In this document: piece by piece, positions 43,978 through 55,620 of the stretch
Numbering within the stretch: position 1 is the first letter of the stretch
Layout of the letters: each line of letters starts with the position of its first letter
Assembly (NCBI RefSeq): GCF_900116685.1
Contig: NZ_FPBL01000006.1
Span: 1 to 64,000, forward strand
Source of the DNA: Nitrosomonas eutropha
GTDB taxonomy: Bacteria; Pseudomonadota; Gammaproteobacteria; Burkholderiales; Nitrosomonadaceae
Length of the DNA stretch: 64,000 nt
Direction: 5' to 3'
Position numbers and translations under genes: made by a program
Notes under the pieces: model-generated
Databases searched by the model: none
The model's input: the letters and a program-made list of their open reading frames with translations, nothing else
Told to the model about the DNA's origin: nothing

Positions 43978-45804
43978 TTGAGTTCGATAATAGCCAAGTT
44001 GGATGTTCCGCCAGCGCAAGAAGGTAATTCCCTATCTTCCGAAGCAAGTGTTGTTTCGGCAACGCCCACAATTAATTTGTTGAGCCAGAGACGAGCTGAT
44101 TTTACAACATTGGTGGAGTCGCTTGAGTATGCGGCACAAGGAGAAACCGGACATAACTTCTATGACGCAAAAGGTAATCTCAAGTCTGTACTTACATACA
44201 AAGATTTATGCGCCAATGCAAAAATAATTGCAAGACGGCTGTCTGGCCTTGGGTTGGCACGCAACAGCCGCGTTGCTCTTGTTGCCGATACTACTCCGGA
44301 GTTTGTTGAGCTGTTTTTTGCCTGTCGGTTTGCGGGCCTTGTTCCATTCGCTATGCCGGTACCCGTTAATCTTGGTAGCCGTGCGATTTATGTACAGCAG
44401 TTAAAAGGAATGCTTGAGGGCAGCGGGGCAAGCGTTGCAATAGCTAATCTTGATTTTATTGAGTTTCTCAATGAGGTGGTTGGGAGTCTGGGAAGCAGTG
44501 AACTCAAATGGAGTGGCACGCCTGAGCAATTGAATCTACTGCCTGAAGCTGATGTGGCGCTTTCTCCAAATGCCCCGGATGAAACGGCTTATCTGCAATT
44601 TACTTCCGGTAGTACTCGTTTGCCGAGAGGAGTAGTCATTACTGAGCGAGCTTTAATGACTAATCTGCGTGGTATTGTTTGCAATGGCCTTGATGTGAGA
44701 CCCGGTGATCGATGCGCTTCGTGGCTGCCTTTTTACCATGACATGGGTTTGGTTGGCTTAGTGTTGGCTCCTTTGGCTGCCCAGTTATCCGTTGATTATC
44801 TGGCAACCCGGGATTTTGCTGTTCGTCCTTTGCAATGGCTTAAATTAATCAGTCGTAATCGCTGTACTATTGCCTTTAGTCAGCCTTTTGGTCTCAAGTT
44901 ATGCACTTTGCGTGCGCGCGTTTCTGATTTAATAGATCTAGATTTAAGTTGCTGGCGTGCCGCTGGTGTTGGGGCTGAGATGATCCGGCTCGATACATTG
45001 AAAAGTTTTTCGGCTAAGTTTTCAGCAGCAGGATTTAATGAAGATGCTTTCTTGCCTTGCTATGGTCTGGCTGAATCTACTTTGGCTGTGTCTTTCCCTG
45101 ATATCAATCAGGGAGTAAAAAGTTTACGTGTGGATGCCAAGACTTTGATCGAAAAAAAGATAGCAGTAAGAGTTCAGGCAGATGGCAGGAAATTTAATGA
45201 GTTTGTGAATTGTGGACGTCCGTTGCCAGGCCATGAAATCAGAGTTGTCGATGACGCTGATCAGGAGGTGCCTCATTTGATGGTGGGTAGTATTCTAGTC
45301 AAAGGGGGAAGTGTGATGAACGGCTATTTTAATAATACAGAAGAGACTGCCAGAGCTATCAGATCAGATGGATGGTTAGATACTGGAGATATTGGTTTTT
45401 TGTTTGAAGGTGATTTATATATCACAGGGCGACGAACAGATGTCATTATTGTTAATGGTAGAAATATTCGAGCGCAGGATGTGGAAGAGTTGGCTGAACA
45501 GCAGCCGGAAGTCAGAACCCGTGAAGCTTCTGCTTTTGGAATCAATAATGAAGATGGCTCGACGTCAGTCGTTTTGGTGGTGGAATGCAGACTGGCTTCA
45601 GCAGTAGATCGACAAGCACTCATTAACAGGCTTCAGCAGATGGTATATATGGCATTTGGGGTAAGTTGCCTGGTTGAGCTGGTGTCTCCACATACTTTGC
45701 CACGAACATCTTCAGGAAAGTTATCACGCTTTGCGGCACGGCAGGGGTTTTTGCGGCGTACAAATATGGAACAGCCTGCTACTACCAGTTATACAGTCGG
45801 CTAA
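43978..45804 (+). CDS. Fatty-acyl-AMP ligase / acyl-ACP synthetase
   Basis: 608 aa of the ANL adenylating family, closest in style to FAALs. The AMP-binding core motif L-Q-F-T-S-G-S-T-R-L-P-R-G-V-V (near 220), the W-L-P-F-Y-H-D-M-G-L-V-G segment, P-C-Y-G-L-A-E-S-T-L-A and W-L-D-T-G-D-I-G-F are present. It would activate a fatty acid as acyl-AMP and pass it to an acyl carrier protein, most likely the one encoded at 46958. The start is TTG at 43978 behind AGGGGAAG. First gene of a run FAAL-reductase-ACP-SPT-like. A role in making sphingoid-type lipid is inferred from that set. Confidence 0.88.
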   Translation: MSSIIAKLDVPPAQEGNSLSSEASVVSATPTINLLSQRRADFTTLVESLEYAAQGETGHNFYDAKGNLKSVLTYKDLCANAKIIARRLSGLGLARNSRVALVADTTPEFVELFFACRFAGLVPFAMPVPVNLGSRAIYVQQLKGMLEGSGASVAIANLDFIEFLNEVVGSLGSSELKWSGTPEQLNLLPEADVALSPNAPDETAYLQFTSGSTRLPRGVVITERALMTNLRGIVCNGLDVRPGDRCASWLPFYHDMGLVGLVLAPLAAQLSVDYLATRDFAVRPLQWLKLISRNRCTIAFSQPFGLKLCTLRARVSDLIDLDLSCWRAAGVGAEMIRLDTLKSFSAKFSAAGFNEDAFLPCYGLAESTLAVSFPDINQGVKSLRVDAKTLIEKKIAVRVQADGRKFNEFVNCGRPLPGHEIRVVDDADQEVPHLMVGSILVKGGSVMNGYFNNTEETARAIRSDGWLDTGDIGFLFEGDLYITGRRTDVIIVNGRNIRAQDVEELAEQQPEVRTREASAFGINNEDGSTSVVLVVECRLASAVDRQALINRLQQMVYMAFGVSCLVELVSPHTLPRTSSGKLSRFAARQGFLRRTNMEQPATTSYTVG

Positions 45805-45886
45805 TAGCTGGTTCTTCATCAGTAAAATCTGCTTATTTATTTAGGGGAAGGAGTCAAAGGGTTTCTTCTCGCATCCGGTGGCTTTT

Positions 45887-46810
45887 ATGGTTAGAACTGT
45901 TGCAGTAACAGGTGCTACAGGATTTATTGGCCGCATACTTATCGCTAAGCTGGTTGAATCTGGATGGAAAATCCGTGCATTAGCAAGACGTACATCTTCA
46001 CAGAAAGATAGTCCATTCATAGAGTGGATTTCTGGAGATCTTAGTTGCTGTAATGCGTTGCGTGATCTTGTTTCTGGTGCTGAAGCTGTTATACATTGTG
46101 CTGGTGTGGTCAAAGGAAAATCCTGGTCTGATTTCTATCAGACTAATGTAATTGGAACGAAAAATATATTACGAGCAGCTTCTGACTCAACTTCTTGCTC
46201 AAGATTTTTACACATTTCTTCTCTGGCAGCGCGTGAACCACTTCTTTCCTGGTATGCACGAAGCAAATTTGAGGCCGAAGAACAGATCCCAAGATTTTCT
46301 GGACGGTTAGCATCTGTTATATACAGGCCGGCTGCAGTTTACGGCCCTGGTGATAAAGCAATGCTACCTTTTTTTCGATCTATGCGATACGGTATACTCC
46401 CTGTTCCTGGAGATCCGGATAATCGTTTCGGCTTGATACATGTTGATGATTTGGTTGCTGCTATTTATTACTGGCTTGAGACAACCTGTCCCGTGGGTGG
46501 TATTTATGCAATTGATGACGGTACATCAGATGGGTACAACTATACGTCGATAGCCATGATCGCACAGCAAGCTCTGGGAAAACCGGTGCGTTGTTTCCAG
46601 ATACCGGCAAGCAGTATATGTATGTTGGCTCGTTTTAATTTGTGGCTGGCCCATCTTTTGAATTACACTCCAATGCTGACACCAGGGAAAGTGATGGAAC
46701 TTCAACATTCTGATTGGACCTGTGATATTTCTTTCCTGAGAAAAGAGCTAGTTGGCTGGCATCCGACAATTAAATTACAAACAGTATTGCCATCACTTGT
46801 CAAAATGTAA
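45887..46810 (+). CDS. NAD-dependent epimerase/dehydratase-type reductase (CerR-like candidate)
   Basis: 307 aa, extended SDR. The dinucleotide site V-T-G-A-T-G-F-I-G, the catalytic S-S-L-A-A-R and Y-A-R-S-K (Tyr-x-x-x-Lys) and the R-P-A-A-V-Y-G-P-G-D motif are intact. Nucleotide-sugar epimerases and 3-beta-hydroxysteroid dehydrogenase relatives share this layout. In bacterial sphingolipid clusters an enzyme of this class (CerR) reduces the keto group of the ceramide intermediate, and its position between FAAL and ACP/SPT genes supports that here. The ATG at 45887 (GGTGG upstream) is chosen, with a GTG three codons earlier as alternative. Confidence 0.82.
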   Translation: MVRTVAVTGATGFIGRILIAKLVESGWKIRALARRTSSQKDSPFIEWISGDLSCCNALRDLVSGAEAVIHCAGVVKGKSWSDFYQTNVIGTKNILRAASDSTSCSRFLHISSLAAREPLLSWYARSKFEAEEQIPRFSGRLASVIYRPAAVYGPGDKAMLPFFRSMRYGILPVPGDPDNRFGLIHVDDLVAAIYYWLETTCPVGGIYAIDDGTSDGYNYTSIAMIAQQALGKPVRCFQIPASSICMLARFNLWLAHLLNYTPMLTPGKVMELQHSDWTCDISFLRKELVGWHPTIKLQTVLPSLVKM

Positions 46811-46957
46811 CAATATTTATTCCTGAAGCATTTGAAAACACCTCATGCGACAATATATAGCCTTTATGTACCTTGATTTTGTTCAGGCTTCTTGCGTCTT
46901 CATGTTTCTCGATCCGGAAATAAATTTGTCGATATACACTGTTCCGGGATTGATCTC

Positions 46958-47212
46958 ATGTCTAAAATAACCCAAACACAAATTACTGAACTGCTTTGTC
47001 AGCGTCTGGCTTGTTTTACAGATGTTGAAGCGGAGATATCTCCAGAAACTAATCTCATTACACATCTTGCGATTGATTCGGTCAAACTGCTGAATCTCAT
47101 AATGGAAATTGAAGATCAGTTTGATATATCAGTTCCGTTGAATGCGCTTGTGGACGTCCTGACGGTTCAGGATCTTGCCAATCTGATTTATAAAATCAAA
47201 TTATCATCATAA
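46958..47212 (+). CDS. Dedicated acyl carrier protein
   Basis: 84 aa. The phosphopantetheine site is the Ser in L-A-I-D-S-V-K-L-L-N, with acidic helix II and a V-L-T-V-Q-D-L-A-N-L end, so it is a carrier protein distinct from housekeeping AcpP (55375-55620; DSL site). Start ATG at 46958 is preceded by GGGA. The longer frame from 46892 has no family support. Its stop shares a base with the start of the next gene (TAATG), coupling it to the SPT-like enzyme, probably its acyl-chain acceptor. Confidence 0.9.
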   Translation: MSKITQTQITELLCQRLACFTDVEAEISPETNLITHLAIDSVKLLNLIMEIEDQFDISVPLNALVDVLTVQDLANLIYKIKLSS

Positions 47213-48399
47213 TGAATCTGCTGGAAAAACTTGATGCAGCTGCAGCAGCAAGGAAAGCACAATTACCTGAGGGTCTCGCTGCTTTTGGTATCCCCATAGA
47301 TGAATCCTACTCTGCGACGGAAGCCAGAATCGGGGAGCGTCGAGTATTAATGCTGGGTACGAACAACTACCTTGGGCTCAGCTTTTCTGCTGAATGCAGA
47401 GAGGCTGCTCATAAGGCTATTGATCAGGAAGGTACTGGCACCACCGGTTCACGTATGGCCAATGGTAATTATTACGGGCATCGGGCGCTGGAACGTGAGT
47501 TGGCAGAGTTTTATCACTGCCGCGAATGTATTGTTTTTACAACAGGCTACCAAGCTAATCTGGGAACCATTTCCGGGTTGGCGGGGGCTGGTGATGTTGT
47601 GCTGATTGATGGGGATGCACATGCCAGTATCTATGATGGATGTATTTTGAGTGGAGCGGATGTTATCCGTTTTCGCCATAATGATGTAATCGATCTTGAG
47701 AAACGCCTTCGCAGGCTGGGTGATCGCAGCCGTGATACACTGATCATTATTGAAGGTATTTACAGCATGCTGGGTGATCAGGCTCCTCTGGCAGAGATTG
47801 TGAAATTGAAAAATGTCTACCAGAGCACTTTGTTACTTGATGAGGCGCATTCACTTGGTGTTCTTGGAGAAACCGGGCAAGGGTTGGTGGAAAAATCCAG
47901 GATGATTAACGAAGTTGATTTTATAACCGGAACTTTTAGTAAAAGTCTGTGTGGTATCGGTGGCTTTTGTGTCAGTAATCATCCTCAGCTTAACCAGCTT
48001 CGGTATGTAAGTCATCCGTACATATTTACAGCTTCCCCTTCCCCAGCAACAATTGCTTCTACACGTGCTGCCTTGCAGTTATTGCGTGATGGGTCTTCAT
48101 TACGTGAACAGCTATGGAAGAATGCTTACCAGCTTTATTCCTGCCTAAAAGAAACCGGGTATTGTCTGGGACCGGAGCCCGGACCTATAGTAGCCGTTTT
48201 ACTTGATAGCCCTAAACGGGCGTTGACCCTGTGGAACGGATTGATGGCGCACGATATCTATGTAAATCTAGTATTGCCTCCTGCTGCTCCGGAAGGAAAG
48301 TCATTGGTACGTTGCAGCATTAATGCAGCGCATACTACTGAACAAATTAGCCGGGTTTGTGAGACCTTCTCTAAACTGTATCCCACTGTGACACAGTGA
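47212..48399 (+). CDS. Serine palmitoyltransferase-like alpha-oxoamine synthase
   Basis: 395-aa PLP enzyme. Family motifs: N-N-Y-L-G-L (about 51-56), G-T-G-T-T-G-S-R, D-G-D-A-H-A-S-I-Y-D-G, L-L-D-E-A-H-S-L-G-V-L-G and the PLP lysine in G-T-F-S-K-S-L (about 244). Alpha-oxoamine synthases include KAPA synthase (BioF), KBL, HemA and serine palmitoyltransferase. The stretch G-G-F-C-V-S-N-H-P and P-Y-I-F-T-A-S just after the lysine is SPT-like, and the partner ACP and FAAL favour condensation of serine with an acyl-ACP to a 3-keto sphingoid base. BioF or another oxoamine product remains possible. Confidence 0.83.
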   Translation: MNLLEKLDAAAAARKAQLPEGLAAFGIPIDESYSATEARIGERRVLMLGTNNYLGLSFSAECREAAHKAIDQEGTGTTGSRMANGNYYGHRALERELAEFYHCRECIVFTTGYQANLGTISGLAGAGDVVLIDGDAHASIYDGCILSGADVIRFRHNDVIDLEKRLRRLGDRSRDTLIIIEGIYSMLGDQAPLAEIVKLKNVYQSTLLLDEAHSLGVLGETGQGLVEKSRMINEVDFITGTFSKSLCGIGGFCVSNHPQLNQLRYVSHPYIFTASPSPATIASTRAALQLLRDGSSLREQLWKNAYQLYSCLKETGYCLGPEPGPIVAVLLDSPKRALTLWNGLMAHDIYVNLVLPPAAPEGKSLVRCSINAAHTTEQISRVCETFSKLYPTVTQ

Positions 48400-55374: not shown

Positions 55375-55620
55375 TTACTGAGTTGAATTAGCAGCTACGA
55401 AATCAATGGCTTCTTGAACCGTATTGATTTTTTCGGCTTGTTCATCAGGAATTTCGCATTCAAATTCTTCTTCCAGTGCCATGACGAGCTCAACTGTATC
55501 AAGTGAATCCGCTCCCAGATCGTTGACGAAAGAGGATTCGTTCTTAACTTCTGACTCGTTAACACCTAACTGCTCGGCTACAATTTTCTTGATACGCTGT
55601 TCTATTTCAGTAATATCCAT
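55375..55620 (-). CDS. acpP: Acyl carrier protein
   Basis: 81 aa. The housekeeping carrier of fatty-acid synthesis. It has the [11 protein letters not shown] phosphopantetheine site and acidic helices typical of AcpP. Start: ATG at 55620 with AAGGATGG upstream. The frame is open to 55716 but family members begin at M-D/S-x-I-E. It sits between fabG (165 bp upstream) and fabF, as in E. coli. Confidence 0.97.

What the first reader, a model, noticed from the sequence alone, without database searches (positions are those of the whole stretch)
43978..48399. Four-gene locus resembling the core of bacterial sphingolipid synthesis
A fatty-acyl-AMP ligase, an NAD-dependent SDR reductase, a private acyl carrier protein and a serine-palmitoyltransferase-like alpha-oxoamine synthase lie in order on one strand, the last two coupled by TAATG. 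In Caulobacter the known ceramide set includes an SPT, an ACP, an acyl-ACP synthetase, CerR (an SDR) and the acyltransferase bCerS. Four of those five classes are present here. The synthase carries an SPT-like stretch after its PLP lysine (G-G-F-C-V-S-N-H-P; P-Y-I-F-T-A-S). Inference: this organism, probably a nitrifier, could make a sphingoid base or a related acylated amino-ketone lipid. No GNAT-type bCerS homologue is visible in this window.
Basis: partly seen in the sequence, partly recalled or inferred. Interest (0 to 1): 0.8.

Follow-up and report, generated by a model that had tools for sequence, protein, structure and literature searches.

The report
Nitrosomonas ceramide (sphingolipid) synthesis operon
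This four-gene cluster of an ammonia-oxidising bacterium starts the making of ceramide-type membrane lipids; the cluster itself is already described in a sister species, but the genome around it hints that these lipids may stand in for the usual Gram-negative surface lipid, LPS.

Summary
In detail: four open genes in one direction encode a fatty acyl-AMP ligase, an epimerase/SDR-type reductase, an 84-aa acyl carrier protein and an alpha-oxoamine synthase. The synthase passes NCBI's betaproteobacterial serine palmitoyltransferase model and clusters with E. coli spt, away from the BioF, KBL and HemA rows; the genome has a separate BioF. The four-gene order holds in 51 of 54 loci returned by one scan (all but three outliers from other groups); 117 of 120 sampled family genomes have the synthase.

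The 'missing' ceramide synthase bCerS is on another contig, in a conserved operon with lipid-kinase, CDP-alcohol transferase, nucleotidyltransferase and lptF/lptG genes. So this is the Caulobacter-type ceramide pathway, already in print for Nitrosomonas eutropha (Neut_0458-0461, Neut_1100).

Not found in print in the searches made: the only LptF/LptG pair detected in this genome lies in the bCerS operon and groups with some sphingolipid-linked pairs of other bacteria, and no LpxC was detected. A 2010 survey reports only lpxK in N. europaea. The boldest open reading is an outer membrane in which sphingolipids replace LPS, carried by a re-purposed Lpt machine. This is inference; of the lipid A genes only LpxC was tested here, in one genome.

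The parts
43978..45804 (+). aasR-like fatty acyl-AMP ligase / acyl-ACP synthetase, 608 aa, TTG start
   Evidence: NF006624 (PRK09192) 878.3 bits, cut-off 600; best PDB match 3pbk Fatty Acyl-Adenylate Ligase E=3.5e-160; 46% identical to the E. coli spt-linked ligase
45887..46810 (+). cerR-like NAD-dependent epimerase/dehydratase-type reductase, 307 aa (ATG; ORF opens at GTG 45878)
   Evidence: PF01370 94.8 bits; 39% identical to the E. coli spt-linked SDR; GATGFIG at residue 9 and YARSK at 123
46958..47212 (+). acpR-like dedicated acyl carrier protein, 84 aa (ORF opens at TTG 46892)
   Evidence: PF00550 41.7 bits; below the cut-off of each of the 18 NCBIfam models listed; LAIDSVKL around the presumed phosphopantetheine serine
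47212..48399 (+). serine palmitoyltransferase, 395 aa; PLP lysine K244
   Evidence: NF047599 571.2 bits, cut-off 500; PDB 2x8u and 2jg2 serine palmitoyltransferases E=3e-114 and 3.2e-104; tree
47210..47214 (+). TAATG overlap of acpR stop and spt start
   Evidence: sequence

Best explanation
The window holds the aasR-cerR-acpR-spt operon of a Nitrosomonas close to N. eutropha. AasR activates a fatty acid as acyl-AMP and loads it on AcpR; SPT condenses acyl-AcpR with serine (decarboxylating) to 3-oxo-sphinganine; bCerS, coded on another contig, adds the second acyl chain; CerR reduces the keto group, giving dihydroceramide. A second operon (bCerS, nucleotidyltransferase, lptF, lptG, CDP-alcohol transferase, ceramide-kinase-like lipid kinase, CC_1161-like protein) then turns ceramide into a phosphosphingolipid and probably moves it to the outer membrane. 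Shown here: gene content, order, family membership, conservation, presence of bCerS and of the second operon. Inferred from work on Caulobacter: the reactions, their order, the head group and the destination.
For: SPT model NF047599 passed (571.2 vs 500). PDB: the best eight sequences are named serine palmitoyltransferase (that they are Sphingomonas enzymes is recalled). Tree of 25 synthases: the protein lies in a 9-row clade (100/100) with E. coli spt, a Klebsiella plasmid gene and a Roseomonas plasmid gene; the BioF, KBL and HemA rows lie in the other half (the program warned of long branches among BioF and HemA rows). K, H, D, H active-site positions are kept in all 26 rows. Separate BioF. 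bCerS homologue at G000:C19:234767-235924, 386 aa, with GNAT match PF00583 22.6 bits, cut-off 20.7. Its operon matches the Roseomonas cluster: CC_1161-like 36%, lipid kinase 25%, CDP-alcohol transferase 40%, nucleotidyltransferase 36%, bCerS 45%, LptG 24%. Order kept in 8 of 8 Nitrosomonas loci compared, own included. A third place, C22:45980-46681, matches the phosphocholine-cytidylyltransferase-like gene, 47%. SPT in 117 of 120 and bCerS in 116 of 120 sampled family genomes. In print for N. eutropha C91: Neut_0458 aasR, 0459 epi, 0460 acpR, 0461 spt, 1100 aca (PMC9386255, section 13 read), and at least 13 of 17 Caulobacter cluster genes in 3 regions, CPG and CPG2 predicted (PMC11324152, passages).
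Against: No lipid of this organism was seen; serine and chain length are inferred. The Arg378 position of the Sphingomonas enzyme (role recalled: binds the serine carboxylate) is Leu here, as in the E. coli, Klebsiella and Roseomonas rows, and Arg in the four BioF-side rows L079, L096, L097, L098; the Arg390 position is Arg in all 24 rows with letters there. The kinase match is weak (25%, E=2.9e-21). Roseomonas LptF, metallophosphoesterase, HIT and sterol-desaturase genes gave no match in the two stretches searched (L083 and the window). One sampled genome has bCerS without SPT (G082), two SPT without bCerS (G085, G144); all three are drafts of 72-80% completeness. CerR of Caulobacter is periplasmic (PMC11087976, abstract), while the nucleotide-binding motif of this SDR starts at residue 9, leaving no room for a usual signal peptide (inference).
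Confidence: 0.92

Rival explanations
1. The synthase is a second BioF, a KBL or another alpha-oxoamine synthase, and the locus makes no sphingoid base.
For: It scores 321 bits on the BioF model and 30-32% identity to annotated BioF and KBL/GCAT rows.
Against: BioF cut-off 426.45 not reached while another gene reaches it; SPT cut-off passed; clade with spt genes at 100/100; dedicated ACP and ligase beside it.
Confidence: 0.02
2. The enzyme uses another amino acid (alanine, glycine or cysteate) and the product is a deoxysphingoid base or sulfonolipid-like amino lipid.
For: Leu in place of Arg378 of the Sphingomonas enzyme; substrate not tested.
Against: The same Leu is in the E. coli and Roseomonas rows, whose clusters are of the ceramide type; Arg390 position kept; bCerS and CerR homologues present.
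Confidence: 0.06
3. Sphingolipids are made besides an ordinary LPS, as in Caulobacter, and LptF/LptG near bCerS serve LPS.
For: LptF and LptG pass NCBI's LPS-export models (331.4 vs 230 and 299.6 vs 240 bits). Caulobacter makes both lipids and has second versions LptF2/LptG2 (PMC11324152 passages). Lipid A genes other than lpxC were not tested here; the LptF/LptG tree lacks an LPS-type betaproteobacterial pair.
Against: No LpxC match in the genome, while the same search rings in 4 of 14 controls, E. coli and Caulobacter among them. N. europaea: only lpxK of nine genes; Nitrosospira multiformis: only lpxA (PMC3087551 section 14). No second LptF/LptG pair found; the pair groups with spt-linked pairs of gammaproteobacteria.
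Confidence: 0.35
4. Only a sphingoid base or other acylated amino-ketone lipid is made, since bCerS is not linked.
For: No bCerS-like gene was recognised in the window.
Against: bCerS homologue in the same genome and in 116 of 120 sampled family genomes.
Confidence: 0.04

Closest known systems
Nitrosomonas eutropha C91 locus Neut_0458-0461 plus Neut_1100 (PMC9386255, 2022)
   Same: Same four genes in the same order and the unlinked acyltransferase; the synthase of strain Nm 57 is 96% identical
   Different: Another strain or species of the same genus; no difference in kind seen in the four genes
Caulobacter crescentus ceramide/CPG2 cluster CC_1168-CC_1152
   Same: aasR, cerR, acpR, spt, bCerS and several later genes have homologues, judged through the similar Roseomonas cluster and through PMC11324152 for N. 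eutropha; Caulobacter proteins themselves were not compared
   Different: Split over three regions; one LptF/LptG pair found, where Caulobacter has second versions
E. coli spt cluster (yghO, FAAL, SDR, ACP, spt; BL21 ECD_02850-02854)
   Same: Same four-gene order; identity 46% ligase, 39% SDR, 53% SPT, 43% over 56 residues ACP; linked lptF/lptG group with those of Nitrosomonas
   Different: bCerS (yghO) is adjacent; two E. coli records with a bCerS match show two LptG places each, so the linked pair is there an extra one
Sphingomonas (sphingolipid in place of LPS)
   Same: Works like it if the LPS-less reading is right; no lipid A in Sphingomonas per PMC10964400 (passages)
   Different: Not shown for Nitrosomonas; Sphingomonas is known for glycosphingolipids (recalled), while the genes here point to phosphosphingolipids

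Membership tests
Bacterial serine palmitoyltransferase (Rhodobacteria type) | Score above the curated equivalog cut-off | tested here: met
   NF047599 571.2 bits vs 500
Bacterial serine palmitoyltransferase (Rhodobacteria type) | Phylogenetic grouping with known spt genes, apart from BioF/KBL/HemA | tested here: met
   9-row clade 100/100 with E. coli spt; the alphaproteobacterial side is represented by one Roseomonas row only
Bacterial serine palmitoyltransferase (Rhodobacteria type) | PLP lysine, stacking histidine, Asp and His of the active site | tested here: met
   K244, H137, D210, H213 align with K265, H159, D231, H234 of 2jgt (roles recalled). These are shared by all 26 rows, so they do not tell SPT from its kin
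Bacterial serine palmitoyltransferase (Rhodobacteria type) | Arg378 of the Sphingomonas enzyme | tested here: inconclusive
   Leu here and in E. coli, Klebsiella, Roseomonas rows; Arg390 position kept, so it is not a defining feature of the wider group
Bacterial serine palmitoyltransferase (Rhodobacteria type) | Condenses serine with acyl thioester | not testable with these tools
   needs an assay
Five-gene rhodobacterial ceramide set | aasR, cerR, acpR, spt and bCerS in one genome | tested here: met
   four in the window, bCerS at C19
Caulobacter-type CPG/CPG2 phosphosphingolipid pathway | homologues of CC_1161, CC_1160, CC_1159 and nucleotidyltransferases CC_1153/1152 | tested here: inconclusive
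   homologues of the corresponding Roseomonas genes found, kinase match weak; the step from Roseomonas genes to CC numbers rests on annotation and position, not on a comparison with Caulobacter
Caulobacter-type CPG/CPG2 phosphosphingolipid pathway | ceramide phosphoglycerates in the lipid extract | not testable with these tools
   needs mass spectrometry
BioF (8-amino-7-oxononanoate synthase) | TIGR00858 cut-off | tested here: not met
   321.1 vs 426.45 bits
LPS-less, sphingolipid-based outer membrane | no LpxC | tested here: met
   PF03331 no match in the own genome, 4 of 14 controls positive; one genome only
LPS-less, sphingolipid-based outer membrane | other lipid A genes absent | not tested
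LPS-less, sphingolipid-based outer membrane | sphingolipid in the outer leaflet, no lipid A | not testable with these tools
   needs membrane chemistry

The most novel reading that the evidence does not exclude
The ammonia-oxidising Nitrosomonadaceae build an outer membrane whose surface lipid is an anionic sphingolipid instead of LPS: the lipid A pathway has been lost, the sphingolipid pathway is kept almost without exception, and the Lpt permeases kept are only the sphingolipid-cluster kind (LptF/LptG inside the bCerS operon), so that the whole Lpt bridge now carries ceramide-based lipids.
Probability: 0.5. Interest if true: 0.8.

Novelty: already known. Interest (0 to 1): 0.5.

Why it matters
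The locus itself is ordinary and in print. Its setting makes an open question testable: what fills the outer leaflet of ammonia oxidisers that lack lipid A genes? PMC3087551 (section 14) calls the loss consistent with genome reduction. If sphingolipids replace LPS in a whole family of environmental bacteria central to the nitrogen cycle, this would be a betaproteobacterial case beside the sphingomonads, and a natural system for asking how Lpt permeases select sphingolipids.

Tried and rejected
Rejected: BioF, KBL and HemA identity. Rejected: absence of ceramide synthase. NCBIfam has no match at E <= 0.001 for bCerS or E. coli YghO, and Pfam none for YghO; Pfam gives bCerS only a generic GNAT match. 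A protein search was needed. A PDB search with bCerS gave nothing at E <= 0.01. A family search under an NCBIfam accession failed (not found in padloc); the protein query was used instead.

The LptF/LptG tree has no LPS-type betaproteobacterial pair, its program warned of long branches, and the spt-linked pairs of Roseomonas and Diaphorobacter do not join the Nitrosomonas group. As a partial check I compared tblastn scores of the own LptG against plasmid records: 125-149 bits with 8 records that also have a bCerS match, but 58 with a ninth (Diaphorobacter), and no match in the Roseomonas records that have bCerS; 90-115 bits with other E. coli, Klebsiella, Pseudomonas, Aeromonas, Acinetobacter, Proteus and Legionella records, 78 with Neisseria. 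I take these last as LPS-type; one search lists only 25 of 44 records, so for some genera the lack of bCerS was not seen. Structure prediction and covariance tools were not used.
Full report
OBSERVATION. The likely starts differ a little from the listed ORFs: reductase ATG at 45887 (307 aa) and carrier protein ATG at 46958 (84 aa), as in the homologous N. eutropha locus L025; the ligase opens with TTG there too. Family scans give fatty acyl-AMP ligase, epimerase/dehydratase-type reductase, PP-binding protein and serine palmitoyltransferase; ligase and synthase pass curated NCBIfam cut-offs, reductase and carrier protein pass Pfam's. Neighbours are greA and an L,D-transpeptidase gene upstream, pgeF and a ZIP transporter downstream.

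WHO CARRIES IT. The window is part of contig C7 of a 2.34-Mb genome in 31 contigs. The synthase is 96% identical to that of Nitrosomonas eutropha Nm 57. Among 61 relatives, 35 have a match at E <= 1e-80: 35 of 37 in the genus (own included), 0 of 24 from other families of the order. In 120 family genomes drawn from a larger group it is 117, and 98 of 99 among good-quality ones, in 4 of 4 genera; one of these matches has an inner stop and one is split over two contigs. The order FAAL-SDR-ACP-SPT holds in 51 of the 54 loci of the scan; the 3 others are from other phyla or classes. Genes outside the four change from locus to locus, which marks the four as the unit.

WHAT THE SYNTHASE IS. It passes NF047599 (571.2 vs 500) and fails BioF (321.1 vs 426.45), while another gene at C25 passes BioF. 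In the PDB the best eight sequences are named serine palmitoyltransferase. In a tree of 25 rows it sits in a 9-row clade, 100/100: six Nitrosomonas rows, E. coli spt, a Klebsiella and a Roseomonas plasmid gene (the program warned of long branches elsewhere in the tree). Four catalytic positions are kept, but they are kept in all 26 rows. The Arg378 position of the Sphingomonas enzyme is Leu, as in the E. coli, Klebsiella and Roseomonas rows, and Arg in the BioF-side rows; Arg390 is kept in 24 of 24 rows with letters there. A pattern count over the 51 loci found YVNLILPP 46 times, YVNLVLPP 4 times and YVNFESPP once; the last was not traced.

THE MISSING FIFTH GENE. E. coli YghO, named in print as the acyltransferase of the set (PMC9386255, section 13), finds one place in the genome, C19, 50% identity, E = 3e-125. 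I gave that search 10 genomes, 8 with the synthase and 2 without: the 8 match and the 2 (G003, G019) do not. With the own bCerS as query, 116 of 120 family genomes match, 98 of 99 of the good-quality ones.

A SECOND OPERON. Downstream of bCerS, in one direction, lie a nucleotidyltransferase, lptF, lptG, a CDP-alcohol transferase, a lipid kinase, a protein without Pfam match and a DUF2959 protein. bCerS, the nucleotidyltransferase, LptG, the transferase, the kinase and the unnamed protein match genes of a Roseomonas mucosa plasmid cluster that also holds FAAL, SDR, ACP and SPT; LptF matches the spt-linked one of E. coli. The order of these eight genes is the same in 8 of 8 Nitrosomonas loci compared, own included; a small ORF upstream of bCerS is seen in 7 of 8. 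A Pseudomonas plasmid shows nearly the same order without the CDP-alcohol transferase at that place. A third place, C22, matches the phosphocholine-cytidylyltransferase-like gene. This fits the statement that N. eutropha has at least 13 of the 17 Caulobacter cluster genes, in three regions, and should form CPG and CPG2 (PMC11324152, passages).

MECHANISM. From PMC9386255 (passages and section 13): AasR loads AcpR, and acyl-AcpR is the preferred substrate of SPT in Caulobacter. The order of reduction and second acylation is disputed; PMC11087976 (abstract and opening as printed by the outline) puts SPT and ceramide synthase in the cytoplasm and CerR in the periplasm, in favour of acylation first. 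I apply this to the window by homology; none of it was measured in Nitrosomonas.

WHAT GOES BEYOND THE PRINTED ACCOUNT, AS FAR AS I SEARCHED. PF03739 finds exactly two LptF/LptG genes in the genome, both in the bCerS operon. In 41 genomes of the genus, 39 have matches and 32 have exactly two. The extra matches of the others are fragments or below cut-off, except one nearly full-length third gene in G020; G015 has one match. For the 38 genomes that have LptF/LptG and were also searched, the pair (in G005 a fragment of it) lies within a few kb of bCerS in 36; in G015 and G036 they are on different contigs (my count by eye from the two tables). In a tree of 24 LptF/LptG proteins, the Nitrosomonas LptF (98/98) and LptG (97/98) group with the spt-linked pairs of E. 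coli, Klebsiella, Pseudomonas and Rahnella, apart from the LPS-type pairs of E. coli K-12 and Aeromonas (the Aeromonas stretch bears no annotation, the label is mine). Against: the Roseomonas and Diaphorobacter linked pairs do not join this group, the program warned of long branches, and no LPS-type betaproteobacterial pair is in the tree. Both proteins also pass NCBI's LPS-export models. PF03331 (LpxC) has no match in the genome, which is rated 100% complete, while 4 of 14 control genomes ring, E. coli and Caulobacter among them. PMC3087551 (passages and section 14) reports only lpxK in N. europaea and only lpxA in Nitrosospira multiformis and calls this consistent with genome reduction. [quoted passage not shown] Hence the bold reading: sphingolipids in place of LPS in this family. 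G003 and G019, without SPT and without LptF/LptG, and without bCerS, are either poor drafts (76% and 91% complete) or exceptions worth a look.

LITERATURE SEARCHES for that link: in an open-licence library only. Listings were seen, several of them cut (25 of 237, 20 of 36, 12 of 267, 15 of 646, 15 of 3,394 papers). I read passages of PMC9386255 and PMC11324152; in those passages neither says that Nitrosomonas lacks LPS. Other listed papers were not opened, apart from those cited here. Subscription papers were not searchable, so the link may be in print.

VERDICT. The locus is already known. The interest lies in the genome-wide setting, which is tested only in part.

Noticed in passing
G000:C19, locus L083 5840-13925: Operon bCerS, nucleotidyltransferase, lptF, lptG, CDP-alcohol transferase, lipid kinase, CC_1161-like protein, DUF2959 protein; order kept in 8 of 8 Nitrosomonas loci compared, own included. 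It holds the only LptF/LptG pair found in the genome.
   Followed up: yes
G000 whole genome: No LpxC (PF03331) match, though the genome is rated 100% complete.
   Followed up: partly
G003 and G019 (same genus): SPT, bCerS and LptF/LptG were all not found, though these genes lie in two unlinked places in the window's genome; drafts of 76% and 91% completeness.
   Followed up: no
L086, L111, L114 (plasmids): Ceramide gene clusters with lptF/lptG on plasmids typed as conjugative in Klebsiella michiganensis, Pseudomonas sp. BYT-5 and Diaphorobacter sp. JS3051.
   Followed up: no
E. coli genomes: 520 of 5426 complete E. coli genomes hold a match to part of the window's spt; the 8 listed are all annotated spt.
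   Followed up: no
G026, G131, G139: A second bCerS-like gene: 35-36% identity in G026 and G131, 61% (beside one of 65%) in G139.
   Followed up: no
window 55447-55560, - strand: Second carrier-protein-like stretch (45% over 38 residues to the E. coli spt-linked ACP), inside a 113-aa ORF; probably the housekeeping AcpP.
   Followed up: no
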